Assembly: GCA_017849615.1 (NCBI GenBank)
Contig: JAFIGS010000017.1
Location: forward strand, 62,001-126,000
Length of the DNA: 64,000 bases
From: Pseudolabrys sp.
Lineage (GTDB): Bacteria > Pseudomonadota > Alphaproteobacteria > Rhizobiales > Xanthobacteraceae
Direction: 5' to 3'
Position numbers and translations under genes: made by a program. Each line of letters begins with the position of its first letter. The first letter of the stretch is position 1. This document shows positions 6,380 to 21,102 of this stretch, piece by piece. The notes beneath the pieces were generated by a model that had not been told where the DNA came from, searched no databases, and worked only from the letters and a program-made list of their open reading frames with translations.

Positions 6380-8710
6380 TTAACTGAGCGGTTTCTGAAC
6401 GATCCCGGAAGCCGCAAAGTCGGCCCTTCGAACGACCATCTGCTTCACGCGGTCCGGCGTAATGGGCAGTTGGGTGACGGCTCCGGGCAGGCCCAGTGCA
6501 TCGTCGATCGCCGCGGCAATGGCCGCGCCCACGGCATTCGTACCGCCCTCACCCGCGCCCTTCACGCCGAGATGATTGAGCGGACTGGGCGCGTCTTCGG
6601 TGACCAGCACGTCGATCGAGGGCACCTCGTGCGCAGTGGGAATGAGATAATCGGCAAAGGTCACCGAGAGCGGTTCGCCGCGCTCGTCATAGCTCAACTC
6701 CTCGAACATCGCGCCGCCCAGCCCTTGCGCGAAACCGCCGACGATCTGGCCTTCGACCAGCATGGGATTGATGGCGCGGCCGACATCGTAGGCCACGAGA
6801 TACTTCTCGATTGCGACATCGCCGGTTTCCGCATCGATGCGGACCACGGCAACGTGAACGCCATAGGGATAGTTCATGTGGTCGCTGAAGAACCAGCCTT
6901 CCGCCGACAGGCCCGGCTCGCGCTCGCCGCGGGTTCGCGACACAGGCAGCAGATGGCGCGCAACGTCACCTAACGCAATCGAAGCCTTGGCCCCACTGGC
7001 GGCGGTGACACGCCCGTCGACAATTTCCAGATCGGCAGCCGCGGCCTGCATCAGATCGGCCGCCATATCGAGCGCCTTGGCCTTGACCTTGAGCGCGGCG
7101 ATACGCGTCGCCTCGCCGGTCATGGCCGTGACGCGAGAGGCGAAGGCACCCATGCCGTTGTCGATACGATCGGTCTGGCCGTGCACCACGCGCACGGCCG
7201 TGTAATCGACGCCCAGCGTATCGGCGCAAATCTGCGCAATGACCGTTTCGACGCCCTGCCCGACCGACGCCGCGCCGGTGATGACCTCGACCTTGCCGCC
7301 GACATCGACGGCGATCTTGACCCCGTCATAGGGGCCAAGACCGCTCTTCTCGACGAACATGCCAATGCCCGCGCCGACCAATTCACCCGCCGCCCGCCTC
7401 GCCTCGATGCTCATCTGCAATTCGTCCCAGCCGACCTTGCGCAGGGACTTGTCGAGCAGGCCGGCATAGTCGCCCGAGTCGTAAACGACATGCGTGCCGA
7501 GGGCGTCGATCGGCCGCTCGAACGGCATCTCGTCCTTGCCGATGAGATTGCGCCGGCGCGCTTCGACCGGCGTAATGCCGACCCGCGCGGCAATGGCATC
7601 CATCAGGCGCTCCCGCACGAAAGTCGTTTCGAAACGTCCCGGCGCGCGGTAGGTGCCGCATGGGGTCTTGTTGGTCAGGCGGATGTGCCCGAGCGTCCGG
7701 TAGTGGGGAACGTGGTAAGGCCCCAGCACCATCGCCGCCGAAAGATCGGGAACGGTCGCGGCATGGGTGCGGACATAGGCGCCCTGATCGTGAAAAAATT
7801 CGTTCTCGATGCCGATAATTTTTCCGGTCGCGTCGATGGCGGCGCGAATTTTGTGCCTCTGCTGGCGTGAATGATTGGCCGCGATCAGGTGCTCGCGGCG
7901 ATCCTCGATCCACTTGACCGGCCGGCCCAGCCGCAAGGCCGCGGCGCAGACCAACACGTCCTCGGGATAAAGCTCGCCGCGCACCCCGAAGCCGCCGCCG
8001 ACATGCCCCTCGTAGAAATGCACCTGCGACGGGCTGCGCTTGAGCATCCGGGCGACCTGATCGCGATTCCAGTGCGGCACCTTGGCGGCACCGTACATTT
8101 CCAGCACGTCTTTCGATGCGTCGTAGCGGCCCAGCGCGCCGCGCGTTTCCATCGGCACGGCAGAGTGTCGTCCGGTCGACAGATCAAGTTCGACGACATG
8201 GGTCGCCGATTTGAAGGCCGCCTCGACGTCGCCATAGCCCTTCCTGACCTGCGCGGGTTCGGTCGAGGCCGTCCCCGCGAAGATCCCCACCGGGCCGTCG
8301 GCGGCGGTGATGACAGGCAGCTCTTCGATGCCGACCTCAACCAGATCGGCAGCGTCTTCGGCGATATAGGGATCCTCGGCAAAGACGACCGCCACCGGCT
8401 CGCCGACATAGCGGACGTGATCCGTGGCCAGGATATGCTGGCGATATGGCTCCAGCCCTTCGATCTTGGTCATGCGGAAATCGATGGGCGGAATATCGCT
8501 GACATCGCCCGCCGTCCACACGGCCACGACGCCGGGCAAGCCCAGCGCAGCGCTTGTGCCGATCGCCAGAATGCGGCCATGGGCCTGAGGCGAGCGCACC
8601 ACGCGCATGTGAAGCTGATGCGGAAACGAAACATCGGCGGCAAAGCGCCCCTTGCCGGTCACCAGAGGCCTGTCTTCGAGGCGGGGAACGGACCGGCCGA
8701 TGAACGCCAT
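6380..8710 (-). CDS. Molybdenum hydroxylase large subunit (xanthine dehydrogenase/CoxL family), copy 1 of two in the operon
   Basis: A 776-residue Mo-cofactor subunit. The N-terminal a/b-hammerhead domain begins RSVPRLEDRPLVTGKGRF. The cofactor-binding part follows with GGGFGVRGE, TYRAPGRFETT, GQGVET and the catalytic Glu in GAGEGGTNAVG. The CO-dehydrogenase loop AYxCSFR is absent, so this is not form I CODH; it is an aromatic, heterocycle or aldehyde hydroxylase type. The start at 8710 overlaps the stop of the 2Fe-2S subunit gene (ATGA). It is the last gene of the minus-strand operon. A second large subunit lies on the other side of the 2Fe-2S gene. Confidence 0.93.
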   Translation of the reverse strand: MAFIGRSVPRLEDRPLVTGKGRFAADVSFPHQLHMRVVRSPQAHGRILAIGTSAALGLPGVVAVWTAGDVSDIPPIDFRMTKIEGLEPYRQHILATDHVRYVGEPVAVVFAEDPYIAEDAADLVEVGIEELPVITAADGPVGIFAGTASTEPAQVRKGYGDVEAAFKSATHVVELDLSTGRHSAVPMETRGALGRYDASKDVLEMYGAAKVPHWNRDQVARMLKRSPSQVHFYEGHVGGGFGVRGELYPEDVLVCAAALRLGRPVKWIEDRREHLIAANHSRQQRHKIRAAIDATGKIIGIENEFFHDQGAYVRTHAATVPDLSAAMVLGPYHVPHYRTLGHIRLTNKTPCGTYRAPGRFETTFVRERLMDAIAARVGITPVEARRRNLIGKDEMPFERPIDALGTHVVYDSGDYAGLLDKSLRKVGWDELQMSIEARRAAGELVGAGIGMFVEKSGLGPYDGVKIAVDVGGKVEVITGAASVGQGVETVIAQICADTLGVDYTAVRVVHGQTDRIDNGMGAFASRVTAMTGEATRIAALKVKAKALDMAADLMQAAAADLEIVDGRVTAASGAKASIALGDVARHLLPVSRTRGEREPGLSAEGWFFSDHMNYPYGVHVAVVRIDAETGDVAIEKYLVAYDVGRAINPMLVEGQIVGGFAQGLGGAMFEELSYDERGEPLSVTFADYLIPTAHEVPSIDVLVTEDAPSPLNHLGVKGAGEGGTNAVGAAIAAAIDDALGLPGAVTQLPITPDRVKQMVVRRADFAASGIVQKPLS

Positions 8711-9192
8711 CAACGCGCCGCCCGCATATCGGCCGCGGCTGCGAGAACGGCCTTGATGATGTTCTGGTAGCCCGTGCAACGGCACAGATTCGACGACAGC
8801 GCATCGATGAGCCCCTCGTCGGAAATATCCGGCTCCTGTTCCAGAACACCGGCCGTCAGCATCAGGAATCCTGGCGTACAGAAGCCGCACTGCAGGCCGT
8901 GATGATCGATGAAGGACTGCTGCAACGGGTGCAGCCTGTCGCCATCAGCGAGGCCCTCGACGGTCCTGAGTCTGGCGCCATCGGCCTGCACCGCGAACAT
9001 GAGGCACGAGCGCACGGGCTTGCCGTCCAGCATGATGGTGCAGGCGCCGCAAACGCCATGTTCGCAACCGATATGCGTTCCGGTTTGCCCGCACTCGTCG
9101 CGAATGGCATCGACGAGCGTGCGCCGCGGCTCGACCTGGACATGGTGGTCGACGCCGTTGATGTTCAGCGTGATGTTTTTTTTGGCGCTCAT
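8710..9192 (-). CDS. Molybdenum hydroxylase 2Fe-2S subunit (CoxS family)
   Basis: A 160-residue protein binding two 2Fe-2S clusters. The plant-type ferredoxin cluster uses Cys43, 48, 51 and 63 ([11 protein letters not shown], then SC). The all-helical second domain uses Cys102, 105, 137 and 139 (CGFCTPG and CRCTG). It moves electrons from the Mo centre to the FAD subunit. It overlaps both large-subunit genes by four bases and is the only 2Fe-2S subunit of this operon, so it probably serves both. Confidence 0.95.
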
Positions 9193-11552
9193 GCGCGAGC
9201 TCCTTCAGGTGTCATCGACGGCACTTTCGATGCGGCATTCAGGGCCGTGTGGATGCGCTCCGGCGTAACCGGAAATTCGTCAAGCGACACGCCGAACGGC
9301 GACAGGGCGTCGTTGATCGCGTTGACGATCGCCGCCGGCGCGCCGATCGATCCGCCCTCGCCGAGCCCTTTCGCCTTGGTGATGGTGGCGCTGCTCATCG
9401 TTTCGAGATGCATGATTTCGATGGCGGGAATTTCATGCGCGGTCGGCGGCATGTAATCGGCCAAGGTTGTGGTCAGAATGTTGCCGGTCTCGTCATAGAC
9501 GATCTGTTCATAGAGCGCGTTGGCGACGCCCTGCGCAACGCCGCCGCAAATCTGACCATCCGCGATCATCGGATTGATGAGACGCCCGGCGTCTTCGGCG
9601 ACGATATAGCGCTCGATGGACACACCGCAGGTTTCGATATCGACTTCGACAATCACGGCGTGGCAGGCGTTCGAGAAAGTGCCGGCCGGATCATAGCTGG
9701 CGGAATCGCTCAGGCCCGGGCCGACATCGGCGCCGAACTTGTGGCTGTGATGATAGACCTCGCGGGCCAAGGCCTCGACCGGCAGCGCGCGATCGGTGCC
9801 GGCAACCTTGGCGACACCATCGGCAATGAAGATATCGGCGGCACTCGCCTCCAGCATATGGCTGGCGATCCTGACCAGTTTCTCCTTCACCTTGCGCGAA
9901 GCGAGCAAGGTGGCGCCGCCACAGATAACGGCCGACCGGCTGGCGAAGGTGCCCCAGCCATAGGGCGTGCGATCCGTGTCGCCGTGAACGACCCTGACCT
10001 TGTCGGGCGTCACGCCCAGCTCATCGGCCATGATCTGCGCCAGCGCGGTGTCGAGCCCCTGCCCGTGCGGCGAAGCGCCGATCCGCGCCTCGACATAGCC
10101 GGACGGATCCATGGCGATCTCGACCGTTTCCCAACCCGGTGTGATGCCCATCCCACGCGCCGCAAAAGCCGGCGTGCCGTAACCGGTGCGTTCGGAGAAC
10201 GCGGCAAAGCCGATGCCCAGGTAACGGCCTTCGGCAAGCGCCTGCTGCTGTCGTCGGCGGAACGCCGGAATGTCGATGGCGTCAACCGCCATCTCCATGG
10301 TTTCGGCATAGGAGGCTTCGTCGAAAACGAGACCCATCACCGAGGTATAGGGAAAGGCGCGAACGAGATTGCGGCGGCGAATATCGATCGCATCCATCCC
10401 GAGATGGCGCGCCGCCTTGTCCATCAGCCGCTCGAGCGCAAAGGTAATCACCGGGCGCGACACGCCGCGATAAGGCGCCATCGGACATGTGTTGGTCACG
10501 ACGCCGCGCGACACGCAGGCGTAATCCCGGACGTCGTAAGGTCCCGGCAACTCGGCGAGCGCCATCAAAGGCTCGACGCCGCATGTCGTTGGGAAGCAGG
10601 AATAGGCGCCGATATTGGCCAGAATGTCGGCGGACAGGCCGAGCAGCTTGCCCTTGGCATCGAAGGCGCCGCTCAAAGTGATGTACTGGTCCCGGCTGTG
10701 AAAGGACGACATCAGGTTTTCGCGGCGGTCTTCCTTCCAGGCGACGGAGGTGCGATATTTGCGCGCCAACCACACCAGCAGCACATACTCCGGCGCCAGC
10801 GACATTTTCTGACCGAACCCACCGCCGACATCCGGCGCGATGACGCGAAGATCGGCCTCGCGCATTCCGAGCAGGTCGGCGATCGCCGTTCGCATCAAAT
10901 GCGGCATCTGGGTCGAGCAGATCAGCGTCGTGCGCCTGGTGACCGGATCGTAGACGGCATGGGCGCCGCGCGTTTCCATCGGCAAGGCGTTCTGGCGATG
11001 CGACCGGACCTCGACGGTCTCGACCCGCGCCGCCGTGGCAAAGACGGCATCGCATTCGGGAGTCTTGACGCGGCCTTCGACAATGACATTGTTCGGGGCC
11101 TCGGCATGGACAGCCGCCGCCGCGCCGCCAACCGCCATTCGCGCATCGACCACCGGCGCAGTATCCTCGATCTGAAGATCGACCAGATCGCAATGGTCCT
11201 CCGCCTCGTCCTCGTTTTGGCAGATTACCGCCGCGACCGCCTCGCCGACAAAACGAACCACCCCATCCGCCAGCACGGGCTGCATCACCGGGACGTAGTT
11301 GAACTTATGCAACATCGGCTGGATCGGCTTCACGCCGGACAGGTCGGCCGCCGTGACCAGCCGGACGTGATCCGGCGCTGCTATTTTCACGATCTTGCCC
11401 GACGCGACCGGGCTGCGGACGAAACGAACATAGAGCGCCGCCGGGACATCCGCCGTAAACCGCCCATCACCACGCACGAGGCTCGGGTCTTCGAACCGGC
11501 GCAGAGACCGGCCGACCCAGTTCGTCGCGGTTTCGCGCACCGGCGGCTTCAT
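9189..11552 (-). CDS. Molybdenum hydroxylase large subunit (xanthine dehydrogenase/CoxL family), copy 2
   Basis: A 787-residue Mo-cofactor subunit of the same family as its neighbour but clearly diverged. It starts VGRSLRRFEDPSLVRGDGRF, then has GGGFGQKMS, the active-site APYRGVSRP, the cofactor-contacting SPHGQGLDTALAQ and catalytic Glu in GLGEGGSIGAP. The start at 11552 overlaps the FAD-subunit stop (ATGA); a longer upstream reading would lie wholly inside the FAD gene and is rejected. Two intact large subunits with one FAD and one 2Fe-2S partner is unusual; they may form a mixed complex or two enzymes sharing small subunits. Confidence 0.93.
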   Translation of the reverse strand: MKPPVRETATNWVGRSLRRFEDPSLVRGDGRFTADVPAALYVRFVRSPVASGKIVKIAAPDHVRLVTAADLSGVKPIQPMLHKFNYVPVMQPVLADGVVRFVGEAVAAVICQNEDEAEDHCDLVDLQIEDTAPVVDARMAVGGAAAAVHAEAPNNVIVEGRVKTPECDAVFATAARVETVEVRSHRQNALPMETRGAHAVYDPVTRRTTLICSTQMPHLMRTAIADLLGMREADLRVIAPDVGGGFGQKMSLAPEYVLLVWLARKYRTSVAWKEDRRENLMSSFHSRDQYITLSGAFDAKGKLLGLSADILANIGAYSCFPTTCGVEPLMALAELPGPYDVRDYACVSRGVVTNTCPMAPYRGVSRPVITFALERLMDKAARHLGMDAIDIRRRNLVRAFPYTSVMGLVFDEASYAETMEMAVDAIDIPAFRRRQQQALAEGRYLGIGFAAFSERTGYGTPAFAARGMGITPGWETVEIAMDPSGYVEARIGASPHGQGLDTALAQIMADELGVTPDKVRVVHGDTDRTPYGWGTFASRSAVICGGATLLASRKVKEKLVRIASHMLEASAADIFIADGVAKVAGTDRALPVEALAREVYHHSHKFGADVGPGLSDSASYDPAGTFSNACHAVIVEVDIETCGVSIERYIVAEDAGRLINPMIADGQICGGVAQGVANALYEQIVYDETGNILTTTLADYMPPTAHEIPAIEIMHLETMSSATITKAKGLGEGGSIGAPAAIVNAINDALSPFGVSLDEFPVTPERIHTALNAASKVPSMTPEGARA

Positions 11553-12406
11553 GGCAACGAGCGCTCCAGCGCGCGCCGGACCACCGTCCGCGCCAGATCG
11601 CGCCGATAATTGGCGCTGGCCTGCAGGTCGCTCATCGGATCGGCCGCGTTGGCGACCGCCTCCGCGGCGGCGCGGAACAGGTCCGGCGACGGCTTCTGAC
11701 CGAGAAGCACCTCTTCCGCTTCGGCAATGCGCCGGGGCACCCCCTCGACGCCGCCAATGCCGACGCGCGGCGCGGCGATGACGCCGTCGGCCAGTTCGTA
11801 GGTGACCAGCGACATCGCCAGCGCATAATCGCCGGCGCGGCGGCTGAATTCGTAGAAACCGAAACGCGTGTTTTCCGGCAGGAGCGGCAGGCGCACCGAG
11901 GTCAGGATTTCGTCCTCGGCGAGCGTTGTGGACATCGCCCATTCGATCAATTCAGTGACGGCGATGCTGCGCGCCCCGCGGACGCTGGTCGCCGTGATCT
12001 CAGCGTCGAGCGTGGCGGACACCAGGCACCACTCCGAGGACGGGTCGGCATGAGCCAGGCTGCCGCAGAAGGTGCCGCGCTGCCGGATCGGATAATGCGC
12101 GATATGGCGGACGACAAACGACAAAAGCTGGCCAAGCGCGCCATCGACGACCGGCTTGTGAAAAGCGGCGTGGCGCACGCCGGCGCCGATGATCAGGGCA
12201 TCTTCCGTCACCTTGATGTCCGCGAGTTCGCGGACGCCATTGATATCGATGAGATGCGCCGGCTTCGCCATCCGGAGTGCCATGGTCGGCACCAGACTCT
12301 GCCCCCCCGAAAGGATACGGCCGTCCTGCGGGGCATATTCAGCCAGCGCCTTGACCGCTTCTTCGAGCGTCGTGGGACGGTGGTATTCAAACGACGCTGG
12401 CTTCAT
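11549..12406 (-). CDS. Molybdenum hydroxylase FAD-binding medium subunit (CoxM family)
   Basis: A 285-residue FAD subunit. The N-terminal FAD-binding PP-loop reads ILSGGQSLVPTMALR, the second FAD contact is IRQRGTFCGSLAHADPSSE, and the C-terminal CO_deh_flav_C-type domain ends RRDLARTVVRRAL. It passes electrons from the 2Fe-2S subunit to an acceptor. It begins 21 bases after the stop of the reductase gene and overlaps the large-subunit gene after it. Confidence 0.94.
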   Translation of the reverse strand: MKPASFEYHRPTTLEEAVKALAEYAPQDGRILSGGQSLVPTMALRMAKPAHLIDINGVRELADIKVTEDALIIGAGVRHAAFHKPVVDGALGQLLSFVVRHIAHYPIRQRGTFCGSLAHADPSSEWCLVSATLDAEITATSVRGARSIAVTELIEWAMSTTLAEDEILTSVRLPLLPENTRFGFYEFSRRAGDYALAMSLVTYELADGVIAAPRVGIGGVEGVPRRIAEAEEVLLGQKPSPDLFRAAAEAVANAADPMSDLQASANYRRDLARTVVRRALERSLP

Positions 12407-12427
12407 CGGTCGGGACGCCTTGGTTTT

Positions 12428-13456
12428 TCAGAGGTCGAGAACGAGCCGGGAGGTCGCGGCTCGCGAGCAGCAGACCGTCATGACGCCGTTGGACGCCTTC
12501 TCGGACGGGTCGAGCACCACGTCACGATGATCCGGTATGCCCTTGAGGACTTTCGTGATGCAGGTGCCGCAGGTCCCTTCGTCGCAGCTGTAAGGGACAT
12601 CGACATTGTGGCGGAGCAGCACCTGCAGGATGGTTTCGCCGGGGTTGACCGTCACCGTGAGGCCGGACCGCGCCAGCGCGACCTTGAAGGGCTGGTCGCC
12701 CTGCTTGTCGAGCGGGGTATCGTTCGAGAAATACTCGAAATGGACCCGGTCCTGGGGCCAGTGGCCGGCGGCGTTCCTGACCGCTTTCATCAGCCCGGTC
12801 GGGCCGCAGCAATAGATATGGGCGCCCGGGCGCACGTCGCGCAGCAACCCGGCCAGATCGAACTGCCGGTCCGGCAGGCCCCCGTCATGATGGAACGTCA
12901 CTTTTCCGGCAAAGGCCGCCGCGACCTCCGCCCTAAACGCCGTCTCCGCCATGGAGCGGGTTAAATAGACAATCTCAAACGGCGTGCCGCGATCCTGGTG
13001 CTGATAGGCCATCGAGAGGATCGGGGTGATGCCGATGCCGCCGGCGATCAGAATCGCCGGCGCTGCGCTGTCACGTATGGTGAAGTGATTGACCGGCGTG
13101 CCGATAAAAAGCGAATCGCCCTCGCGGAGGGTGGCGTGGATGTAGGACGAACCGCCCGTGCTGTTGGCGTCCCGCTGGATGCCGAGGACATAGCGGTGCG
13201 TTTCCAACGGGTTATTGGCCAGCGAATAATGGCGGATCAACCCGGACGGCAACCGGACGGCGACATGCGCCCCGGCCGTAAACGCCGGGAGCGGGCTCCG
13301 GTCGGGTCGCACGAGCTCATACATGCGGATTCGATCGGTCTCGTCGACAATCCTGGCGACACGCACTTGCAGCAGGTCGTTCATGGCAAATCCGGTCTGT
13401 AACGCGCTACCAACCGGCGGCGGCGCGTACGAAGTCATCGGTTGATGCGCATTCAT
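12428..13456 (-). CDS. Rieske oxygenase reductase, VanB/phthalate dioxygenase reductase type
   Basis: A 342-residue flavin-iron-sulfur reductase. An FMN-binding ferredoxin-reductase domain carries RHYSLAN (75-81), an NAD domain carries GGIGITP (139-145) and CCGP (216-219), and a C-terminal plant-type 2Fe-2S domain uses Cys291, 296, 299 and a Cys at 329 or 330. The C-terminal ferredoxin order is that of class IA reductases such as VanB. A GGAG eight bases before the ATG supports the start at 13456, although a Met at residue 25 would be nearer the usual family start. It lies 21 bases after the oxygenase gene, its obvious partner. Confidence 0.94.
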   Translation of the reverse strand: MNAHQPMTSYAPPPVGSALQTGFAMNDLLQVRVARIVDETDRIRMYELVRPDRSPLPAFTAGAHVAVRLPSGLIRHYSLANNPLETHRYVLGIQRDANSTGGSSYIHATLREGDSLFIGTPVNHFTIRDSAAPAILIAGGIGITPILSMAYQHQDRGTPFEIVYLTRSMAETAFRAEVAAAFAGKVTFHHDGGLPDRQFDLAGLLRDVRPGAHIYCCGPTGLMKAVRNAAGHWPQDRVHFEYFSNDTPLDKQGDQPFKVALARSGLTVTVNPGETILQVLLRHNVDVPYSCDEGTCGTCITKVLKGIPDHRDVVLDPSEKASNGVMTVCCSRAATSRLVLDL

Positions 13457-13477
13457 CGAGCGCGCTCCGCAGAACGA

Positions 13478-14491
13478 TCAGGGGAGATAGGCCTCGGACG
13501 AGCCCATATCGCGCAGAAGTCGCCGATAAATGATCGCCGGGGCGTCAGGAAAACGAAGATGCAGTTCTTCCTTGATGTCGGTCGGGATCTGCTCGGGACG
13601 CTGGCTTTCGACGATAAGCTGGTCCTGCGCCGTCACCAAATCGAAATTGGCGACAAAGGACTGGTCTTCCATATCGAGAGAATGGTTACGAGCCATAAAG
13701 GCGTACATGTGCGTCGTCTTCTCGTCGACCGGCGCAGCAATGAACGTCAGGATCGTCGAGTCGCCCTGCCTGGTGTCGTCGGTCTCGGACCAGGTGCGTC
13801 CCTTGTCGGTCGCAATCACTTTCTTATGGTCGTGGATCACGAACGGAAAATCGAGCGTGTATTCCCGCCGGATACGACCATCCTCATACGCGAAGGCCAG
13901 TCCTTCCTTGGTGCGCTCGACTTCATAAGGCTTCACGACCGGTCCGTCCGCCAACTCGGTGTAGCCGGCGTGAACAATGTTGAAGTGAGAGAAATCCATC
14001 GCATTTTCGACGGCGCGACCGGCCGACGACTTCCAGCGGTACACATTGATGAGGAATACGTGGTAATCGGGATTGCTCCACGCGTTGTCCGGCCATTGCG
14101 GAAACGGCTGCACCGGATCTTTCATTGCCACCCAGACGAGTCCGTATTCTTCGCGGGCTTGGTATGGAATGGCGCGCGCCTTGGCCGGAATCGGCTGGCC
14201 CGCCGGCAACGACGGAATGTGAACGCAGGCGCCCGAACGGTCATAGGCCCAGCCGTGATAGGGGCAAACGATGTTGCCGTCCTTGACCTTGCCATTCGAC
14301 AATGCCGCCCCGCGATGAATGCAGAGATCCTTGAACGCCGCGACACCCTTCTCGTCCCGGAACGCCACGACGGTATCGCCGAGCAGCCGGAACTGCTTCG
14401 GCTTGTCGGAAACCTCGGCAGAGGTCGCGATGGGGTGCCAGAAGTTCTCCAGCGTTAACGCATTCGGCGTCTGAGCAGCGGCGACGTTCAT
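13478..14491 (-). CDS. Rieske non-heme iron oxygenase alpha subunit, VanA/O- or N-demethylase type
   Basis: A 337-residue oxygenase. The Rieske cluster ligands are Cys57, His59, Cys76 and His79 (CIH and CPYHGW). The mononuclear iron site is Asp166, His169, His174 in NAMDFSHFNIVH, where the D-x2-H-x4-H spacing matches vanillate demethylase, dicamba demethylase and toluenesulfonate methyl-monooxygenase. No beta subunit gene is near, as expected for this alpha-only group. Demethylation or hydroxylation of an aromatic acid or N-heterocycle is the likely role; the substrate is not readable. It sits between the binding-protein gene and its reductase. Confidence 0.94.
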   Translation of the reverse strand: MNVAAAQTPNALTLENFWHPIATSAEVSDKPKQFRLLGDTVVAFRDEKGVAAFKDLCIHRGAALSNGKVKDGNIVCPYHGWAYDRSGACVHIPSLPAGQPIPAKARAIPYQAREEYGLVWVAMKDPVQPFPQWPDNAWSNPDYHVFLINVYRWKSSAGRAVENAMDFSHFNIVHAGYTELADGPVVKPYEVERTKEGLAFAYEDGRIRREYTLDFPFVIHDHKKVIATDKGRTWSETDDTRQGDSTILTFIAAPVDEKTTHMYAFMARNHSLDMEDQSFVANFDLVTAQDQLIVESQRPEQIPTDIKEELHLRFPDAPAIIYRRLLRDMGSSEAYLP

Positions 14492-14519
14492 GGTCCTTGC
14501 CCTTTCCTGACGATCGCCA

Positions 14520-14540
14520 GCGGCGCAAAGGCTGCGCCGC
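14520..14540 (-). promoter_or_regulatory. Intercistronic stem-loop between binding-protein and oxygenase genes
   Basis: A perfect 8-bp stem (14520-14527 pairing with 14533-14540) encloses a 5-base loop in the 80-base gap after the binding-protein stop. There is no T-tract. As with the other SBP-linked hairpins in this window, it could protect the 3' end of the SBP part of the mRNA or weaken read-through. Confidence 0.6.
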
Positions 14541-14571
14541 CGGCCTTCGATGATGCTTATTTGATCCGCGG

Positions 14572-15681
14572 CTACTCGTTGGCGTCCGCTTCCTTGCCGC
14601 CCTTGACGACGATCATCGCCGCCGAGTGCGTCGGATCGCCCTTGGCGTCGAATTTGAAGACGCCGCGCGCGCCGTTGATTTCGACGGTCTTGAGCGCGTC
14701 GCGCACCTTCGCCTTATCGGTCGAACCGGCCTTGGTGATGGCGGCGGCGGCGAGCTTCACCGCGTCGTAAGCCTGCGCATGCGTGTAATCGGCGAGACGG
14801 TTGTAGTTGTCCTTGACACTCTTGACGAGCGCCATGCCGATCGCGGTCTTGGCTGTCGGAATCGCGAAGTCGGTCGGATAGACCACGCCTTCCGCCGCGT
14901 CGCCGGCGAGTTCAAGATACTTCGGCGTGCCGTCGCCGGCGAGCAGCGGGATATTGAGACCCATCTGCTTCTTCTGCTTCGAGATCAGGGCCTGCTCGGC
15001 ATACCGCGACCATTCGATCAGCACTTCCGCACCGGACGAACGAATGCGGGTGAGCTGGCCGGTGAAATCGAGGTCGCCGCGCGCATACTTTTCGTCAGCG
15101 ACAAGCGTCATGCCGAGCGTCTTGGCCTTGGCATTGAATTTCTCGAAACCGCCTTTACCGAAGTCGTCGTTGACGTAGATGAAGGCGTACTTCTTCTTGT
15201 TCGGATACTTCTTGGCGACGAAGGCGGCAAGACTCTCGGCGAAAGCGGTATCCGGAATAGTCGAACGGAACACCCAGGGATTGCCCTGCGTGGTAATGCG
15301 CTGCGCCGTCGACGTGATGACGATCTGCGGTGTCTCGGTCTGCGCGGCGATCTGCGAAGCGGCAAGGCTCGCCCCGCTCGAAATGCTGCCAAGCAGAACG
15401 GTGACCTCGTCCTGGTTGGCGAGACGCAAGGCGACGGCCGCCGCCTGCTCCGGCTTGCCCGCATCGTCGGCATAGACAATTTCGAACTTCTTGCCGAGCA
15501 CTCCCCCGGCGGCATTCACTTCCTTGACCGCGATCTCGACGCCTTCCTTCTGGCTCTGGCCGTAAGCGGCGGCGTCACCCGTGAACGGACCAAATACACC
15601 GAGCTTGATTTGGGCGGACGCGGGCGTGACCGCAAAAGCCGCCGACAGGCCTAGAGCAATTGCCAGATTCCGTAACTTCAT
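14572..15681 (-). CDS. Branched-chain amino-acid-type ABC substrate-binding protein (LivJ family)
   Basis: A 369-residue periplasmic protein with a Sec signal peptide (MKLRNLAIALGLSAAFAV, cleavage near ASAQ). The mature part starts IKLGVFGPFTGDAAAYGQSQ and continues with the ligand-binding ANQDEVTVLLGSISSGASLA typical of Peripla_BP_6 proteins. The start at 15681 is supported by AGGGGAG nine bases upstream; a longer reading would overlap livF. In catabolic operons these proteins often bind aromatic acids rather than amino acids. It lies between the transporter genes and the oxygenase genes, tying uptake to catabolism. Confidence 0.94.
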   Translation of the reverse strand: MKLRNLAIALGLSAAFAVTPASAQIKLGVFGPFTGDAAAYGQSQKEGVEIAVKEVNAAGGVLGKKFEIVYADDAGKPEQAAAVALRLANQDEVTVLLGSISSGASLAASQIAAQTETPQIVITSTAQRITTQGNPWVFRSTIPDTAFAESLAAFVAKKYPNKKKYAFIYVNDDFGKGGFEKFNAKAKTLGMTLVADEKYARGDLDFTGQLTRIRSSGAEVLIEWSRYAEQALISKQKKQMGLNIPLLAGDGTPKYLELAGDAAEGVVYPTDFAIPTAKTAIGMALVKSVKDNYNRLADYTHAQAYDAVKLAAAAITKAGSTDKAKVRDALKTVEINGARGVFKFDAKGDPTHSAAMIVVKGGKEADANE

Positions 15682-15730
15682 CGTCTTGACTCCCCTCGTT
15701 GACAATTCGTGTACGTCGTTAGAAACCACT

Positions 15731-16477
15731 TCATGAGGCAACCGCGGGTATGCGCCCCATGTCGGCAGACGCGCGCCCGCCAAGATAACTTTCAACGACC
15801 CGCGGGTCCCGCCGCAGCGCCGATGCGTCGTTACTGAAGACGATGCGCCCGTTCTCGATGACATAACCTCGATCAGCGATGGCGAGCGCCACGCGCGCAT
15901 TCTGTTCGACCAGAAGAATGGTCATGCCCCGCTTGCGCAACGACAGGATGGTGCGCGCGACATCCTCAACGATTATCGGCGCCAGGCCGAGCGAGGGTTC
16001 GTCGAGCAACAAGAGCTTCGGCCGGCTCATCATGGCGCGGCCGATGGCCAGCATCTGTTGCTCACCGCCGGACAGGCTTTCCGCCAGTTGTCGACGGCGC
16101 TCTTTCAGCCGCGGGAAGGTGTCGTAGATCCCCTCGATATCGGAACGGATTTGCGCCTTTGAAGCGATCAGATGCGCACCGACAATCAGGTTGTCCTCGA
16201 CGGCGAGCTTTGGGAACACACGGCGGCCTTCGGGGACGTGAGCAATGCCCATCGAGACAACCCGATCGACAGGAGCGCCGCTCGTCGTCGTGCCCTCGAA
16301 GGAAATCGAGCCCCGCTTGATGGTGGTCATGCCAGAAATCGTGCGCAGCAATGTCGATTTGCCGGCACCATTGCCGCCGATCAAGGTGACGATTTCGCCA
16401 CGCTTGACCGAGAACGATACGCCCCTCAATGCGACGATCTCGCCATAAGCGACCGTGAGATCTTCGACCTCAAGCAT
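15731..16477 (-). CDS. ABC transporter ATP-binding protein, LivF type
   Basis: A 248-residue ATPase. Walker A is GGNGAGKS (34-41), the signature LSGGEQQMLAIGRAMM, Walker B LLLLDEPSLGL and the switch region LLVEQNA. The start MLEVEDLTVAYG overlaps the end of livG by eight bases; an alternative 17 codons upstream would lie further inside livG. The protein ends about 15 residues beyond the usual LivF end (GGRASADMGRIPAVAS). It pairs with the LivG-type ATPase. Confidence 0.94.
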   Translation of the reverse strand: MLEVEDLTVAYGEIVALRGVSFSVKRGEIVTLIGGNGAGKSTLLRTISGMTTIKRGSISFEGTTTSGAPVDRVVSMGIAHVPEGRRVFPKLAVEDNLIVGAHLIASKAQIRSDIEGIYDTFPRLKERRRQLAESLSGGEQQMLAIGRAMMSRPKLLLLDEPSLGLAPIIVEDVARTILSLRKRGMTILLVEQNARVALAIADRGYVIENGRIVFSNDASALRRDPRVVESYLGGRASADMGRIPAVAS

Positions 16478-17261
16478 AGGCGGCCAGCCTTTCCTCAAGG
16501 CCAGGCCGGCCAAGATAGGCTTCAACAACCTGCTCGTTGTTCTGGACCTCGCTCGGCGAGCCCTCAGCCAGGAGCTTTCCGTAGTTGAGTACGCTGATTT
16601 GCGAGCAGGTGGACATGATGACGTCCATGTGGTGCTCGACGAGAATGATGGTTACGCCGGACTCGCTGATGCGCTTGATGAGTTGGGTCAGCGCGACCGC
16701 TTCCGTCGGATTCAAACCGGCGGCAGGCTCATCGAGCAGCAGGAGTTGCGGCGTCGATGCCATCGCACGCGCGATTTCCAGAAGCCGCTTCTGTCCATAA
16801 GAAAGCGATCCCGCCTCGACCTCCGCCAAGGCGAGCAGTCCCACGGTTTGCAGCGCCGCCAGGGCTTCGTCACGCAGACGCCGCTCCTCGGCGGCGGCCG
16901 ACGGAAGGCATAGCATTGCACCCCAGATGCCCGCCCTGCCGCGCAAGTGCGAGCCAACCATCACGTTTCGCAGCACGCTCATGCTGTCGAACAGCTTGAT
17001 GTTCTGAAAGGTACGGCCAATGCCCATCGCCGCACGCCGATGCGTCGGCGACGCGGAGACCTCGAGACCATCGAACACAATCGAGCCTTCACTGGGCTGC
17101 ATTGTGCCGCCGATGAGACTGAGCAAGGTCGTCTTGCCGGCGCCGTTCGGGCCGATTACGCCGCGTACCTGACCGTGCGCGACCGTCATCGAAATATTGT
17201 CGGTGGCGACGAGGCCGCCAAAGCGCTTGGCCAGGCCGCTGATCTGAAGAAGCGCGCTCAT
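16470..17261 (-). CDS. ABC transporter ATP-binding protein, LivG type
   Basis: A 263-residue ATPase. Walker A is GPNGAGKT (37-44), followed by GIGRTFQNIKLF, the LivG-type Q-loop with its RTFQ motif. The signature is LSYGQKRLLEIARAM and Walker B LLLLDEPAAGLNPTE; the C-terminal BCA_ABC_TP_C stretch is LNYGKLLAEGSPSEV. The start at 17261 overlaps the livM stop (ATGA). Confidence 0.94.
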   Translation of the reverse strand: MSALLQISGLAKRFGGLVATDNISMTVAHGQVRGVIGPNGAGKTTLLSLIGGTMQPSEGSIVFDGLEVSASPTHRRAAMGIGRTFQNIKLFDSMSVLRNVMVGSHLRGRAGIWGAMLCLPSAAAEERRLRDEALAALQTVGLLALAEVEAGSLSYGQKRLLEIARAMASTPQLLLLDEPAAGLNPTEAVALTQLIKRISESGVTIILVEHHMDVIMSTCSQISVLNYGKLLAEGSPSEVQNNEQVVEAYLGRPGLEERLAAYA

Positions 17262-18259
17262 TCGGCCAGCTCCCGTCGTTCGAGCCGACCCGGGTCGAAA
17301 CTGGCGCGCCGGCTGACCGCCCGCGCCGCGGAGACGCAAAGCCCCGCAATGCCGTTCTGACCCAGCCCCATCAGAACAATCAGTAGCAGAGCAAAAATCA
17401 GCATGCGGTATTCCGCAGCGAACCGCAGCGCTTCCGGCAGAAGCATCACCACGAAGGCGCCGATCACCGCGCCTCCAATGCTGCCGATCCCCCCGACCGA
17501 AACCATGAGCAAGATCTCAATCGACCGCCACAACGAGAAGTCGTTGGGATTGAGATACTGCGTATGGTGAGCGTAAAGCGCGCCGGCAATACCGGTGATG
17601 ACCGCCGACACCACGAAGGCCTGGGCTTTATAGAGCGTTACGTTTATGCCACTCGCCTGCGCGGCATCTTCATTGAGCATGATGGCGCTCAAAGCGCGGC
17701 CGAAACGCCCGATGACCAGGCGATAGGCCACAAAACACGCCGCCCCAAGGATCGAGAGATAGAGATAGTAGGCCGCCGCGGGGCTGCGCAGCAGCCACGG
17801 TCCGATGCTCGGGCGGGGAATACCCATCAGGCCGAGCGAACCGTGGGTCAACCATTCCTCGTTCAGAATGACCAGATGCACGATAATGGTGAAGCCGAGC
17901 GTCGCGACACCGAGATAGGTGCCTTTCAGCCGGAGGATCGGCACCAGGATCAGGCTGGAGAGGCCGCTCAACAATCCGGCCGCGACGATCGTCAGCTCAA
18001 AAGGCAACTTCAATCCGGTTGCGAGCAGACCCGAGGTGTAAGCGCCGACACCCAGAAACGCCGCCTGCCCCAGCGACAGCAGCCCGGTAAAGCCAAGCAG
18101 CAATTGCAACGCCACCGCCGCAATCGAAAAGATCATCGCCGAACTGACGATATGGAGATGATACTTGCCCAGGAACAACGGCAGCGTCAGCAGCGCCAGC
18201 AGGCCGGCGAGCAAGGCGGCGATCGCGAAGGGCGAAACTCTGGCGACGGGTTCGCTCAT
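17258..18259 (-). CDS. ABC transporter permease, LivM type
   Basis: A 333-residue membrane protein of about eight to ten segments, beginning FAIAALLAGLLALLTLPLFL. The LivM signature GFTGLLSLGQAAFLGVGAYT is present, as is the cytoplasmic stretch ALSAIMLNEDAAQASGIN. It pairs with the LivH-type protein whose gene ends one base upstream. Confidence 0.94.
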   Translation of the reverse strand: MSEPVARVSPFAIAALLAGLLALLTLPLFLGKYHLHIVSSAMIFSIAAVALQLLLGFTGLLSLGQAAFLGVGAYTSGLLATGLKLPFELTIVAAGLLSGLSSLILVPILRLKGTYLGVATLGFTIIVHLVILNEEWLTHGSLGLMGIPRPSIGPWLLRSPAAAYYLYLSILGAACFVAYRLVIGRFGRALSAIMLNEDAAQASGINVTLYKAQAFVVSAVITGIAGALYAHHTQYLNPNDFSLWRSIEILLMVSVGGIGSIGGAVIGAFVVMLLPEALRFAAEYRMLIFALLLIVLMGLGQNGIAGLCVSAARAVSRRASFDPGRLERRELAE

Positions 18260-18260
18260 G

Positions 18261-19145
18261 TCATCGCCCCCGCCGCATCGCGCCTGCGAAGCCTTGCGGC
18301 AGCACCAGCAGAATGACGATGAGCAAAACCATGCCGACGGCGTCTTTATAGGCCGTCGAAATGCTGGTCGCGGTGAAGGTCTCGATCAGGCCGAAAACAA
18401 TGCCGCCAAGCATGGCGCCGCCGATACTCCCAAGCCCGCCGAGAGTGGCCGCGACGAACGCCTTGATACCCGGCAGAAACCCCATGTTGAACGAGGCATA
18501 GAACATCGAGCCGAGCAGCACGCCGGCGGCGCCGCCGAGTATCCCGGCAATGCCGTAGGTCGAGGCCACCGCCCGCGTCAGGTTGATGCCCATAAGCTGA
18601 GCCGCCTCAGGATCCTGCGCCACCGCCTGCACGGACAGGCCGGCCCGCGTGAAGCGCAGGAACAGCTGAAGCGCCAGCATCATGCCGAGCGCCAGAACGA
18701 CGATCCAAACCAACTGAGGCGCGACCCTCACCGGCCCAAGCTGGAGGCCTTCGAGCGCAAACAGGCGTGGATAAGCAATCGGCTCCGAACCCCAAACCAA
18801 CTGCGCACCGTTCTGCAGCAGAATCGACATGGCGATGGTCGAGATCACGATATTGACCATGGGAACGCGCCTGACCCGCAAGGTGCGGTAGATCAAGAGC
18901 TCGATGATCACGGCCATCACGCCGGCAAAAAGCGCGCCGGCCACGAACAGCGCCGGAAACGGCAGCGGCACCAGCCGGTAGGTCGCGAGCCCGAACATGG
19001 CTCCCAGCATGACGACCTCGCCTTGCGCGAAATTGAGCACGCCGGTCGCGCGGATGATGATCGAGAGACCGAGAGCGATCAGGCTGTAAATGCAGCCGAT
19101 GGCCAGACCGCCGACCAGCAACTCCACCATCTCGGCTATCGTCAT
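18261..19145 (-). CDS. ABC transporter permease, LivH type; first gene of the oxygenase/Mo-hydroxylase operon
   Basis: A 294-residue permease with the LivH hallmark GLAIGCIYSLIALGLSIIIRATGVLNFAQGE (residues 13-43) and eight or so membrane segments. It is the first gene of the run down to 6380: all eleven genes are on the minus strand with gaps of 80 bases or less. Upstream is an AT-rich gap shared with a divergently transcribed XRE-cupin regulator, the likely controller. Confidence 0.94.
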   Translation of the reverse strand: MTIAEMVELLVGGLAIGCIYSLIALGLSIIIRATGVLNFAQGEVVMLGAMFGLATYRLVPLPFPALFVAGALFAGVMAVIIELLIYRTLRVRRVPMVNIVISTIAMSILLQNGAQLVWGSEPIAYPRLFALEGLQLGPVRVAPQLVWIVVLALGMMLALQLFLRFTRAGLSVQAVAQDPEAAQLMGINLTRAVASTYGIAGILGGAAGVLLGSMFYASFNMGFLPGIKAFVAATLGGLGSIGGAMLGGIVFGLIETFTATSISTAYKDAVGMVLLIVILLVLPQGFAGAMRRGR

Positions 19146-19517
19146 CGCGAGCGCTCCCGTCCCACCAGACGTTGCAGTCGTGCCGTCACGGCATCCGTTC
19201 GCCTCTCGGCGTCCGGCCCGGCCGCAATCACGTTAAAGGATTTCTATTCTCATTCAAGTCGCGCGAGTTTTATTTTCGCTAAAATTGTTTTCAGCAGTGC
19301 GAAATTGCGCGGCACCCTGCCTCAAGAACGGGCTTCCGGCCGAGCGCAGCGCAGCAACTCGGCGCCCGAAGCCGCGCTGAAAGTCTGCACGTATTTGTTG
19401 AATTGTGCTCAAATAAGCTCGCCGGACGATGACGCGCTGGCGCGCGGCCGCCGCACGATGCTAGACATGAGCGTGCCGTTCGGGCTTTCGCCGCCCACAG
19501 AAACAAGGACCAAACAC
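19146..19517 (+). promoter_or_regulatory. Divergent promoter region between livH operon and XRE-cupin regulator
   Basis: This 372-base gap holds no convincing gene. Its centre (about 19228-19295) is markedly AT-rich against a GC-rich background. On the minus strand a possible -35 TTGAAT (19252-19257) and weak -10 TAACGT (19230-19235), 16 bases apart, face livH. An inverted repeat ATTTT-cgct-AAAAT lies at 19272-19285, and a looser TTGA/TCAA dyad near 19397 faces the regulator. These are candidate promoter and operator elements; none is proven. Confidence 0.5.
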
Positions 19518-20129
19518 TTGAAGAAGCGCAAAAAAGACTCCACGGCGCACCGCAAAAATGGAGCGGAAGGCGGCATGGGGGATGTCATCGCTTCGATCGG
19601 CAAGACGGTGAACAGCCTGCGTACAGCCAAAGGCCTCACGCTTCAATCCTTGAGCAAGCGCGCCAATCTCAGCGTTTCCATGCTCAGCCTTATCGAACGC
19701 GGGAAAGCGAGCCCCTCGATCGGAAGCCTTGTGGTCCTTGCGTCCGCCCTTGGCGTGGAAATGACCGACCTGATCGGCAACGGCTCGTCGAAGAACGATC
19801 GGCTGGTCTCGCGCGCCAAGGAGCAAAAGGTTGTGCAGACAAATGACGGCGTCATGCGCCGCATCGTCAAAACCGACGCCGCGCACGGCATCGAAATCGC
19901 CATCAACGAGTACGATGTGGCCACCGCCAACAGCCCAAAGCCGGTGAAGCATCAAGGCTTTGAGTACGGCATCGTGCTTCAGGGCGAACTGCAGATCACC
20001 GTCGATGGCGTCAAGAACACCCTCATGGCCGGCGATCTGATCTCCTATCCATCGACGCAGCCCCACCGCATCGTCAACAGCGGCAGCAAACGCGCGCGCG
20101 CGCTCTGGATCAATCTCAAGCGCGAGTGA
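19518..20129 (+). CDS. XRE-family transcriptional regulator with C-terminal cupin domain
   Basis: A 203-residue regulator. A basic N-terminal tail (MKKRKKD) is followed by a helix-turn-helix at about residues 28-85 (LRTAKGLTLQSLSKRANLS, SMLSLIERGKASPSIGSL) and a cupin effector domain at about 125-200 (GFEYGIVLQGELQIT, GDLISYPSTQPHRIVNSG). I chose the TTG at 19518 because AAGGA lies eight bases upstream; in-frame ATGs at 19458 and 19467 lack a ribosome binding site, and an ATG at 19575 would remove 19 residues. This PuuR-like group usually represses catabolic operons until a small ligand binds the cupin. Position suggests control of both the livH operon and the cupin/cyclase genes. Confidence 0.9.
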   Translation: MKKRKKDSTAHRKNGAEGGMGDVIASIGKTVNSLRTAKGLTLQSLSKRANLSVSMLSLIERGKASPSIGSLVVLASALGVEMTDLIGNGSSKNDRLVSRAKEQKVVQTNDGVMRRIVKTDAAHGIEIAINEYDVATANSPKPVKHQGFEYGIVLQGELQITVDGVKNTLMAGDLISYPSTQPHRIVNSGSKRARALWINLKRE

Positions 20130-20291: not shown

Positions 20292-20687
20292 ATGTCGCAG
20301 GCTGAACCGCTCGACAGGGTACGCGTGATCGATAGCCAGGGCGCGCTGCCCGAGGTCGACATTGTCGATGGCGCCGGCTGGGCCAAAGCCGTCATCTGGC
20401 CAGGCAATGGCGCGCGCTACCGGACCTTTCAGATCATCAATCTCGGCGCGGGCTCTTCCACCCGCAGCCTCGATCACAAGACCGACAGCGTTTACTACGT
20501 GATGCGGGGCGCCGGAACCGTCGAGGACGTCAACGCCAGGACCGACACGGAGATCGTCGAAGGGTCGATGATCCATATCGACGCCGGCGACCGGTACCGT
20601 ATCAAGGCGCATGCGACGGGCCTTGAGCTGCTGGGCGGCCCCTGCCCGGCCGACGAGCGCTGGTACAGCGCCGCGCAATCCAACTGA
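20292..20687 (+). CDS. Small single-domain cupin protein 1
   Basis: A 131-residue cupin. The first motif region reads LGAGSSTRSLDHKTDSVYYVMRG and the second EGSMIHIDAGDRYRIKAH. Compared with the canonical G(X)5HXH(X)3-4E(X)6G, only one clear His (DHKTDSVYYV) is present and the Glu looks like Asp, so metal binding may be altered. Function unknown; such proteins act as lyases, isomerases or ligand-binding helpers in catabolic clusters. It starts a plus-strand run after the putative operator repeats. Confidence 0.85.
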   Translation: MSQAEPLDRVRVIDSQGALPEVDIVDGAGWAKAVIWPGNGARYRTFQIINLGAGSSTRSLDHKTDSVYYVMRGAGTVEDVNARTDTEIVEGSMIHIDAGDRYRIKAHATGLELLGGPCPADERWYSAAQSN

Positions 20688-20697: not shown

Positions 20698-21102
20698 ATG
20701 AGCATTCGCGTTTTCCACCGGGATCATCCCAGCCTTTATATTCCCCTCATCTCCAAGGACGCCCGCTTCGTCGTGTGGCCCGGAACCGGCGCCTGGAACG
20801 CCAACATGAATTATGTTCGCCTCGAGCCGGGCGAAGCCAACGTTCCGCATATCCACGCCGAATCCGAGGACACGATTTTCATCCTGGAAGGCGAAGGCAC
20901 GATCTACGACCACACCAATGGCATCGCGCTGCCCTTTCACGCCGGCTGTGCCGTGCACGTGCCTGTTGGCGTCAAGCACGCGGTCGCGGCCGACAAGGGC
21001 GTGCGCGTCGTGAGCGTCGGCGGCCCCGCCCCGGCGGACGTTCGTTTGCTCAAGGCCGTCGGAGCGCTGGAACCGGGCGCAGCGGCGCCCGTCCCAGCCT
21101 GA
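20698..21102 (+). CDS. Small single-domain cupin protein 2
   Basis: A 134-residue cupin lying ten bases after the first. Here the metal motif is well kept: VPHIHAESEDTIFILEGEG gives HxH and Glu, and AVHVPVGVKHAV gives the last His. It is therefore likely a metal-binding cupin enzyme or sensor. The two neighbours share the opening pattern VVWPG/VIWPG and look like an old tandem duplication in which one copy lost ligands. The extreme C-terminus is Ala/Pro rich. Confidence 0.87.
   Translation: MSIRVFHRDHPSLYIPLISKDARFVVWPGTGAWNANMNYVRLEPGEANVPHIHAESEDTIFILEGEGTIYDHTNGIALPFHAGCAVHVPVGVKHAVAADKGVRVVSVGGPAPADVRLLKAVGALEPGAAAPVPA

What the first reader, a model, noticed from the sequence alone, without database searches (positions are those of the whole stretch)
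6380..19145. Eleven-gene uptake and oxidation operon joining a Liv importer, a Rieske oxygenase and a molybdenum hydroxylase
Seen: livH-M-G-F, SBP, Rieske oxygenase, reductase, then FAD, large, 2Fe-2S and large Mo-hydroxylase subunits, all minus strand with overlaps or short gaps. Known: Rieske VanA-type enzymes demethylate or hydroxylate aromatic acids; CoxL-family enzymes hydroxylate N-heterocycles or aldehydes using water. Inference: one pathway takes up a methylated or N-heterocyclic compound and oxidises it twice by different chemistry. I know of no described pathway with this exact gene set.
Basis: partly seen in the sequence, partly recalled or inferred. Interest (0 to 1): 0.72.

Follow-up and report, generated by a model that had tools for sequence, protein, structure and literature searches.

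The report
N-heterocycle catabolic cluster with twin Mo-hydroxylases
A bacterial gene cluster that most likely imports a nitrogen-ring compound and oxidises it with an iron oxygenase and an unusual molybdenum enzyme that has two different catalytic subunits; its core recurs in other bacteria, but its substrate is still unknown.

Summary
The eleven-gene minus-strand run is real: Liv importer, Rieske oxygenase, VanB-type reductase and a molybdenum hydroxylase, with gaps of at most 80 nt or overlaps. The conserved core is a molybdenum hydroxylase in the order M-L1-S-L2: one FAD and one 2Fe-2S subunit with two different large subunits, 37% identical, both with the catalytic Glu. All 7 strong L1 hits in 397 genomes of the order are followed by an L2. 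In 8 other genomes the same cupins lie by these genes (whole module seen in 7). Two plasmids, of Rhodococcus and Pantoea, pair the cupins with Rieske oxygenases and reductases but show no molybdenum hydroxylase in the stretches read, so the window looks like a bridge between two versions. The Rieske protein belongs with SxtT/GxtA and NdmA; one 61% relative was found, in a cluster with the same core. Best reading: inducible catabolism of an N-heterocycle, probably N-methylated, pyridine-type slightly ahead of purine-type. Ten searches of open-access papers listed no description. New variant of a known kind; substrate unproven.

The parts
18261..19145 (-). livH, Liv-type permease
   Evidence: LivH/UrtB family by NCBIfam, below the cut-offs
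17258..18259 (-). livM, Liv-type permease
   Evidence: LivM/UrtC family, below the cut-offs
16470..17261 (-). livG, ATPase
   Evidence: LivG, 261 bits with the longer ORF 16470-17339; start refined
15731..16477 (-). livF, ATPase
   Evidence: LivF, 270 bits with the longer ORF 15731-16528; start refined
14572..15681 (-). periplasmic Liv-type substrate-binding protein
   Evidence: Peripla_BP_6, 226 bits; signal-peptide-like N-terminus seen by eye
13478..14491 (-). rox, Rieske non-heme iron oxygenase of the NdmA/SxtT group
   Evidence: Rieske + VanA_C; PDB sequence and fold; C57/H59/C76/H79, D166, H169, H174, D290 invariant in an alignment of 32
12428..13456 (-). red, VanB-type reductase with C-terminal plant-type 2Fe-2S domain
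   Evidence: Fer2, NAD_binding_1, DmmA-like_N
11549..12406 (-). moM, FAD subunit of the molybdenum hydroxylase
   Evidence: FAD_binding_5 + CO_deh_flav_C
9189..11552 (-). moL1, large Mo subunit 1
   Evidence: MoCoBD_1/2; nearest solved: quinoline 2-oxidoreductase large subunit, 496 bits
8710..9192 (-). moS, 2 x [2Fe-2S] subunit
   Evidence: Fer2 + Fer2_2
6380..8710 (-). moL2, large Mo subunit 2
   Evidence: MoCoBD_1/2; nearest solved: 6-hydroxypseudooxynicotine dehydrogenase large subunit, 624 bits
19575..20129 (+). XRE-cupin regulator, divergent
   Evidence: HTH_3 + Cupin_2 on the ORF holding it; 44-49% to copies beside M-L1-S-L2 in 5 other genomes
19146..19574 (.). divergent intergenic region; ATTTT-CGCT-AAAAT inverted repeat at 19272 as candidate operator
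   Evidence: no statistic, suggestion only
20292..20687 (+). cup1, small cupin without the HxH metal motif
   Evidence: 45-51% in 5 alphaproteobacterial clusters of alignment A1; 35-42% on the Rhodococcus and Pantoea plasmids
20698..21102 (+). cup2, small metal-type cupin (H51, H53, H94)
   Evidence: 70-78% in 5 alphaproteobacterial clusters; 56-57% on two plasmids
21138..21995 (+). PF04199 cyclase-family hydrolase with HVGTHFD motif
   Evidence: PF04199 (on the longer ORF); 63-71% in clusters of G542, G604, G960; 55% on the R. ruber plasmid
22025..23215 (+). OYE-type FMN oxidoreductase, possible further step
   Evidence: Oxidored_FMN; no tblastn hit in the relative stretches shown
23561..24352 (+). 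Asp/Glu/hydantoin racemase family, possible further step
   Evidence: PF01177, 80 bits; no tblastn hit in the relative stretches shown

Best explanation
An inducible catabolic cluster for an N-heterocyclic, probably N-methylated, compound. Shown by sequence: a Liv-type importer; a Rieske oxygenase with its own reductase; a molybdenum hydroxylase with one FAD subunit, one 2Fe-2S subunit and two different, apparently active large subunits (M-L1-S-L2); a divergent XRE-cupin regulator; two small cupins; and a PF04199 hydrolase. Inferred mechanism: the binding protein and LivHMGF bring the compound in. The Rieske/reductase pair uses O2 and NAD(P)H to remove an N-methyl group as formaldehyde, or to hydroxylate the ring. 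L1 and L2, each docking on the shared M and S electron path, then put water-derived hydroxyls on two different ring carbons next to nitrogen. The activated ring is opened, possibly by cup1/cup2 acting as one bicupin dioxygenase, and the resulting cyclic or formyl amide is hydrolysed by the cyclase-family enzyme. The XRE-cupin protein senses the substrate or an intermediate and controls both arms.
For: Families and junctions. Rox: PDB neighbours SxtT/SxtDIOX (145, 140 bits), NdmA (134), NdmB (106), then a phthalate-dioxygenase-like protein (85) and dicamba demethylase (72); an AF2 model (pLDDT 88) finds GxtA/SxtT, then NdmA, NdmB, then dicamba monooxygenase; metal ligands invariant in 32 sequences. 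L1 and L2 nearest to N-heterocycle hydroxylases. In the catalytic-Glu column E stands in 10 of 10 L1 and 9 of 10 L2 sequences; the exception is the L2 of an M-S-L2 locus. 7 of 7 L1 hits at E<=1e-200 in 397 genomes (own genome included, two of the seven) have an L2 match next on the same strand, 0.5-0.7 kb after the L1 match in six; in G542, whose L2 match is partial, 1.2 kb. XRE, cup1 and cup2 beside M-L1-S-L2 in G212, G267, G421, G542, G960; cup1 and cup2 beside moM and L1 in G604, G735, G832, which are one genus (whole module seen in G604 and G735). R. ruber pmega_2: XRE, 2 x (Rieske + reductase), cup1-cup2 as one annotated 260-aa gene, CN-hydrolase, cyclase; Pantoea pPAT9B02: 2 Rieske, reductase, cup1, cup2. 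For a pyridine-type ring: L100 holds rox + red with a 2,5-dihydroxypyridine dioxygenase homologue (307 bits) and a monooxygenase resembling 6-hydroxynicotinate 3-monooxygenase (216 bits; tropone 2-monooxygenase scores 241).
Against: No substrate, expression or activity data. Rox sits with G960 on its own branch, unresolved against the clade with NdmA and against the clade holding Meiothermus, cyanobacteria and L099-L102 (quick tree only), so N-demethylation is not proven; HpxD, a relative at 32-34%, is tied to purine hydroxylation (PMC7373994, passages). Two NdmA pocket positions (N282, F286; numbers recalled) read F and T in the window protein (alignment). M-L1-S-L2 also occurs without cupin or Rieske hits in the stretches read (own C30 copy; G026), so the Rieske step is an add-on. 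No red hit was found in the G960 stretches read. The cyclase also occurs apart from the cluster: 35 of 198 family genomes, own included, have a match at E<=1e-80, and none of the four contexts read shows the cupins. In the own genome cup2 is 8 kb from moM, not beside it. No CN-hydrolase hit lies in the window (best in the genome 31%) and the only CoxG-like hit is a 24% one in the second Mo set at 37010-37393, while five relatives have both genes beside the cupins.
Confidence: 0.55

Rival explanations
1. Purine/ureide reading: the cluster degrades a methylxanthine, methyluric acid or methylhydantoin; Rox is an NdmA- or HpxD-like enzyme and L1/L2 are caffeine-dehydrogenase-like.
For: NdmA/NdmB among the closest solved structures; plasmid relatives annotated HpxD at 32-34%; Rieske relative in Meiothermus beside xanthine dehydrogenase and XdhC over their cut-offs or near them, an ABC importer and a Bmp protein; guanine deaminase in 15 and HIU hydrolase in 7 of 67 relative loci; HyuA, HyuB and creatininase in the G960 cluster.
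Against: L1 and L2 are not nearest to xanthine dehydrogenases: their nearest solved enzymes act on quinoline and a pyridine. Window rox is not in the same branch as the guanine-deaminase or XDH-linked ones (quick tree). No NCBIfam purine model reached its cut-off with the window proteins scanned; moL2 was not scanned against NCBIfam.
Confidence: 0.25
2. Two-pathway reading: Liv + rox + red demethylate or hydroxylate one compound, and the downstream Mo genes serve another; they merely share a transcript.
For: M-L1-S-L2 and rox + red each occur without the other in relatives.
Against: rox, XRE, M-L1-S-L2, cup1 and cup2 recur together in G960; the cupins tie both versions together across phyla.
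Confidence: 0.15
3. Only one large subunit matters: L1 or L2 is a decaying duplicate or a structural partner.
For: M-S-L2 without an L1 hit is seen beside 7 L2 hits (L122, L126, L127, L129-L132), so L1 is dispensable elsewhere; at 37% identity they are old paralogues.
Against: Both intact in the window, with E in the catalytic-Glu column and different, separately conserved active-site loops (YRGV[SA]RP in 10 of 10 L1; GTYRAPGR in 9 of 9 L2 of modules aligned).
Confidence: 0.15

Closest known systems
Quinoline pathway of Pseudomonas putida 86 (QorMSL + 2-oxoquinoline 8-monooxygenase)
   Same: Mo hydroxylase and Rieske oxygenase on one N-heterocycle (order recalled); L1 is nearest to QorL among solved structures.
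   Different: Two large subunits here; Rox scores only 31 bits with the quinoline Rieske enzyme. Other transport and downstream genes (recalled).
NdmA/NdmB caffeine N-demethylases
   Same: Fold and domain order of Rox; metal ligands conserved.
   Different: About 30% identity; ordinary VanB-type reductase instead of the multidomain NdmD; not in the same branch (quick tree).
Nicotine pathway KdhLMS (6-hydroxypseudooxynicotine dehydrogenase)
   Same: moL2 matches KdhL over 754 residues, 624 bits; 41-42% by tblastn with the annotated plasmid copies.
   Different: KdhLMS has one large subunit (recalled); no Rieske step known to me.
Riboflavin/lumichrome catabolism (lum operon; PMC12746152, passages seen)
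   Same: Xanthine-oxidase-like enzyme, Rieske oxygenase and a cupin enzyme in one N-heterocycle pathway.
   Different: LumC/LumD are alpha and beta subunits with separate ferredoxin and reductase, and open a quinoxaline dione; no twin large subunit in the passages seen.
HpxDE Mo-independent xanthine hydroxylase
   Same: Rieske oxygenase group, 32-34% identity.
   Different: A Mo hydroxylase is present here, and no purine gene was recognised beside it.

Membership tests
Rieske non-heme iron oxygenase | CxH...CxxH Rieske ligands, 2-His-1-carboxylate iron site, bridging Asp | tested here: met
   C57, H59, C76, H79, D166, H169, H174, D290 invariant in 32 sequences; roles of the residues recalled
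NdmA-type N-demethylase | Groups with NdmA/NdmB in a tree | tested here: not met
   Outside the 25-row clade (SH-aLRT 95) that holds NdmA/NdmB; quick tree only, careful tree not finished
NdmA-type N-demethylase | Removes N-methyl groups | not testable with these tools
   no assay
VanA vanillate demethylase | Closest to VanA | tested here: inconclusive
   VanA_C Pfam match 59 bits, but SxtT/NdmA 106-145 bits against dicamba demethylase 72 and Foldseek E-values in the same order; VanA itself not compared
Xanthine-oxidase/CoxL-type Mo hydroxylase | L, M and S subunits with MoCo domains, FAD and two 2Fe-2S domains, catalytic Glu | tested here: met
Aerobic CO dehydrogenase | AYxCSFR-type Cys loop (recalled) | tested here: not met
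   L1 has APYRGVSR and L2 GTYRAPGR
Single-large-subunit LMS Mo hydroxylase | One L per M and S | tested here: not met
   M-L1-S-L2 here and at all 7 L1 hits
Liv (HAAT) importer | LivHMGF + Peripla_BP_6 binding protein | tested here: met
Liv (HAAT) importer | Substrate is a branched-chain amino acid | not testable with these tools
   below the NCBIfam Liv cut-offs

The most novel reading that the evidence does not exclude
A molybdenum hydroxylase with two different catalytic large subunits that share one FAD and one iron-sulphur subunit carries out two successive, regiospecific hydroxylations of one ring, and is coupled in one pathway to a Rieske oxygenase and a heterodimeric cupin ring-opening enzyme: a previously undescribed N-heterocycle route of which the window is the bridging version between a molybdenum-based and a Rieske-based form.
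Probability: 0.3. Interest if true: 0.68.

Novelty: new variant of a known kind. Interest (0 to 1): 0.5.

Why it matters
If true, it gives a conserved, testable gene set for an N-heterocycle whose breakdown has no assigned genes, and a natural case of a molybdenum enzyme with interchangeable catalytic subunits on one electron-transfer pair. The cupin pair would serve as a marker to find the pathway in other phyla and on plasmids.

Tried and rejected
CO dehydrogenase or glyceraldehyde dehydrogenase for the Mo genes: best NCBIfam names for M, L1 and S, but below cut-off, and the CODH loop is absent. Riboswitches and other Rfam RNAs: none at gathering scores in the window or in L104, L106, L046, L052, L058, L032, L060. 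cup1/cup2 as (S)-ureidoglycine aminohydrolase: only 15-16 bits, E 0.004-0.009, on the fused Rhodococcus form. 3-hydroxypyridine four-component enzyme: a recalled lead; one search listed no such paper. Structure of cup2 from a single sequence: pLDDT 45, not used. Cyclase as isatin hydrolase: 21-31 bits only. Literature: 10 searches of an open-access library, of which I saw listings and abstract starts; four papers were opened for passages only (PMC7373994, PMC12746152, PMC12445004, PMC8079746), the last without use. No listing showed this gene set. Tree: the careful search did not finish; the quick tree of 82 rows is cited. Rows with under 270 aligned query positions and the short duplicate loci L009-L018 were left out of it.
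Full report
OBSERVATION. The window lies at C35:62001-126000 of a 4.4 Mb genome in 35 contigs. The eleven minus-strand genes are present as reported. Gaps are at most 80 nt and several stops overlap the next start. No minus-strand sigma-70-like site was found inside the run, which is weak evidence in this kind of organism.

RIESKE OXYGENASE. Rox (337 aa) matches Rieske and VanA_C in Pfam. Against solved structures the best are SxtT and SxtDIOX/GxtA (145, 140 bits), NdmA (134) and NdmB (106), followed by a phthalate-dioxygenase-like protein (85) and dicamba demethylase (72). An AlphaFold2 model from 32 sequences (pLDDT 88) ranks GxtA and SxtT first, then NdmA and NdmB, then dicamba monooxygenase, by Foldseek. 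The cluster ligands and iron ligands are invariant in those 32 sequences. One scan of the genome-contig collection (84,980 species) found 416 stretches encoding a relative and kept the best 80. A single one is close, 61% in a Rhodobacteraceae MAG (L019, the genome later called G960); the next over full length are 38-39% (L020, L075), and L073 reaches 47% over a part. That scan needs exact short peptides and can miss relatives. Among 198 genomes of the family, the best-scoring hit outside the own genome is 38% identical; the 10 congeners in that sample have nothing better than 39% over 190 residues, so the gene looks accessory.

WHERE ROX RELATIVES LIVE. Of the 80 named loci, 12 show a tblastn hit to a window Mo large subunit within the fetched flanks, many of which are cut short by contig ends: L019, L020, L028, L032 and eight similar Acidimicrobiia. 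L101, a family genome at 38%, also has Liv + Rieske + Mo hydroxylase genes. In a clustering of 67 loci, guanine deaminase accompanies rox in 15 and HIU hydrolase in 7, each named from one representative. In Meiothermus rufus rox lies among genes for xanthine dehydrogenase (large subunit over its cut-off, small subunit 452 against 467 bits), XdhC (over cut-off), an ABC importer that I take for nucleoside-type, and a Bmp binding protein. In L100 rox and red lie with a Liv importer, a 2,5-dihydroxypyridine dioxygenase homologue (307 bits) and a monooxygenase that resembles 6-hydroxynicotinate 3-monooxygenase but scores somewhat better with tropone 2-monooxygenase; L099 has the same rox, red and Liv hits but its other genes were not tested. 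So the wider group serves both purine and pyridine contexts. In the quick tree the window protein and L019 form their own branch (support 100), unresolved against both sets.

MOLYBDENUM ENZYME. L1 is nearest to quinoline 2-oxidoreductase (496 bits) and L2 to 6-hydroxypseudooxynicotine dehydrogenase (624 bits) among solved structures. They are 37% identical to each other. E stands in the catalytic-Glu column in 10 of 10 L1 and 9 of 10 L2 aligned; the exception is the L2 of G325, an M-S-L2 locus without L1, and the frame-broken L2 of G542 was not aligned. The CODH cysteine loop is absent. In 397 genomes of the order, L1 at E<=1e-200 is found 7 times in 6 genomes (the own genome twice). In 7 of 7 an L2 match follows on the same strand, 0.5-0.7 kb after the L1 match in six and 1.2 kb in G542, whose L2 match is partial; S lies between and M before. 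L2 at the same threshold is found 15 times in 13 genomes; of the 8 without L1, 7 show M-S-L2 and one (G402 C154) shows no M or S hit in the 13 kb read. Thus L1 appears to be a second catalytic subunit placed between M and S.

THE CORE CLUSTER. Beside M-L1-S-L2 lie an XRE-cupin gene (44-49%), cup1 and cup2 in G212, G267, G421, G542 and G960, from at least three families (G267 and G421 are one genus). Cup1 and cup2, without a detected XRE, lie beside moM and L1 in G604, G735 and G832, all of one genus; the whole module was seen in G604 and G735, only M and the start of L1 in the short G832 locus. CN-hydrolase and CoxG genes (families tested on the G267 copies) are added in G212, G267, G421, G542 and G960, and the cyclase in G542, G604 and G960. 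In the class sample 4 of 385 genomes have cup2 at E<=1e-40: the own genome, where it is 8 kb from moM across the Liv/Rieske genes, and the three of that one genus, where it is next to moM. Cup2 keeps H51, H53 and H94; cup1 lacks the HxH motif. The second M-L1-S-L2 of the own genome (C30) and that of G026 have Liv and MarR-type neighbours instead (MarR tested on the G026 copy) and no cupin hits in the stretches read.

PLASMIDS. Rhodococcus ruber pmega_2 carries XRE (44%), two Rieske/reductase pairs (rox 37% and 34%), one annotated 260-aa cupin gene covering cup1 and cup2, a CN-hydrolase and the cyclase (55%), and in the same stretch a formate dehydrogenase operon. Pantoea sp. At-9b pPAT9B02 carries two Rieske genes, a reductase, cup1 and cup2, with an FAD monooxygenase and an isochorismatase-family hydrolase. 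No molybdenum hydroxylase hit appeared in those stretches of 40 and 36 kb. The fused cupin suggests that cup1 and cup2 work as one protein. The window, with Rieske, reductase, M-L1-S-L2 and both cupins, combines the two versions; G960 has rox but no red hit in the stretches read.

MECHANISM. Import, two or three oxidations, ring opening and amide hydrolysis is the reading with best support; only gene content and residue conservation are shown. N-demethylation is favoured by the NdmA neighbours and, weakly, by the formate dehydrogenase on the Rhodococcus plasmid, but formate could also come from ring cleavage. Pyridine-type substrates are favoured by the L1/L2 neighbours and by L100; purine or ureide types by NdmA/HpxD and by HyuA, HyuB and creatininase in G960.

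NOVELTY. No description was found in 10 searches of an open-access library (listings and abstract starts seen), so subscription papers may hold one. Mo hydroxylase plus Rieske in one N-heterocycle pathway has precedent (quinoline, recalled; lumichrome, passages). The twin-large-subunit module and its cupin association are what I would call new; whether other twin-L modules are described I could not establish.

Noticed in passing
window 33547-45716 (+): A second Mo-hydroxylase set (L 34532-37468, M, S) with AraC regulator, AMP-binding ligase, enoyl-CoA hydratase and a second Liv-type importer.
   Followed up: partly
own genome C35:186001-205000 (locus L179): A 2,5-dihydroxypyridine dioxygenase homologue (34% to the L100 protein) directly beside Mo-hydroxylase L, M and S genes and a small cupin-like ORF (labels of the neighbours partly by eye).
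   Followed up: partly
own genome, whole: 15 MoCoBD_1 matches in 4.4 Mb: a Mo-hydroxylase-rich genome in my judgement, not compared with others.
   Followed up: no
locus L020 (Meiothermus rufus): Rieske oxygenase among genes for xanthine dehydrogenase, XdhC, an ABC importer and a Bmp protein: a candidate methylxanthine demethylase or HpxD-like enzyme.
   Followed up: partly
locus L142 7595-9892: An M-S-L2 large subunit with G where the catalytic Glu is expected (KGCGG).
   Followed up: no
loci L171-L174: Close relatives of the window cyclase (81-90%) without cupin hits in the 18 kb read; one (L173) has a 39% Mo large-subunit hit beside it; 35 of 198 family genomes, own included, have a match at E<=1e-80.
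   Followed up: partly
window 768-6031 (+): M19 dipeptidase, family-8 binding protein, ABC permease/ATPase and RidA-type genes convergent with the operon.
   Followed up: no
loci L037, L039-L041, L043, L049, L051, L071 (Acidimicrobiia): Conserved order of ABC importer, Mo hydroxylase L-M-S and Rieske oxygenase.
   Followed up: partly
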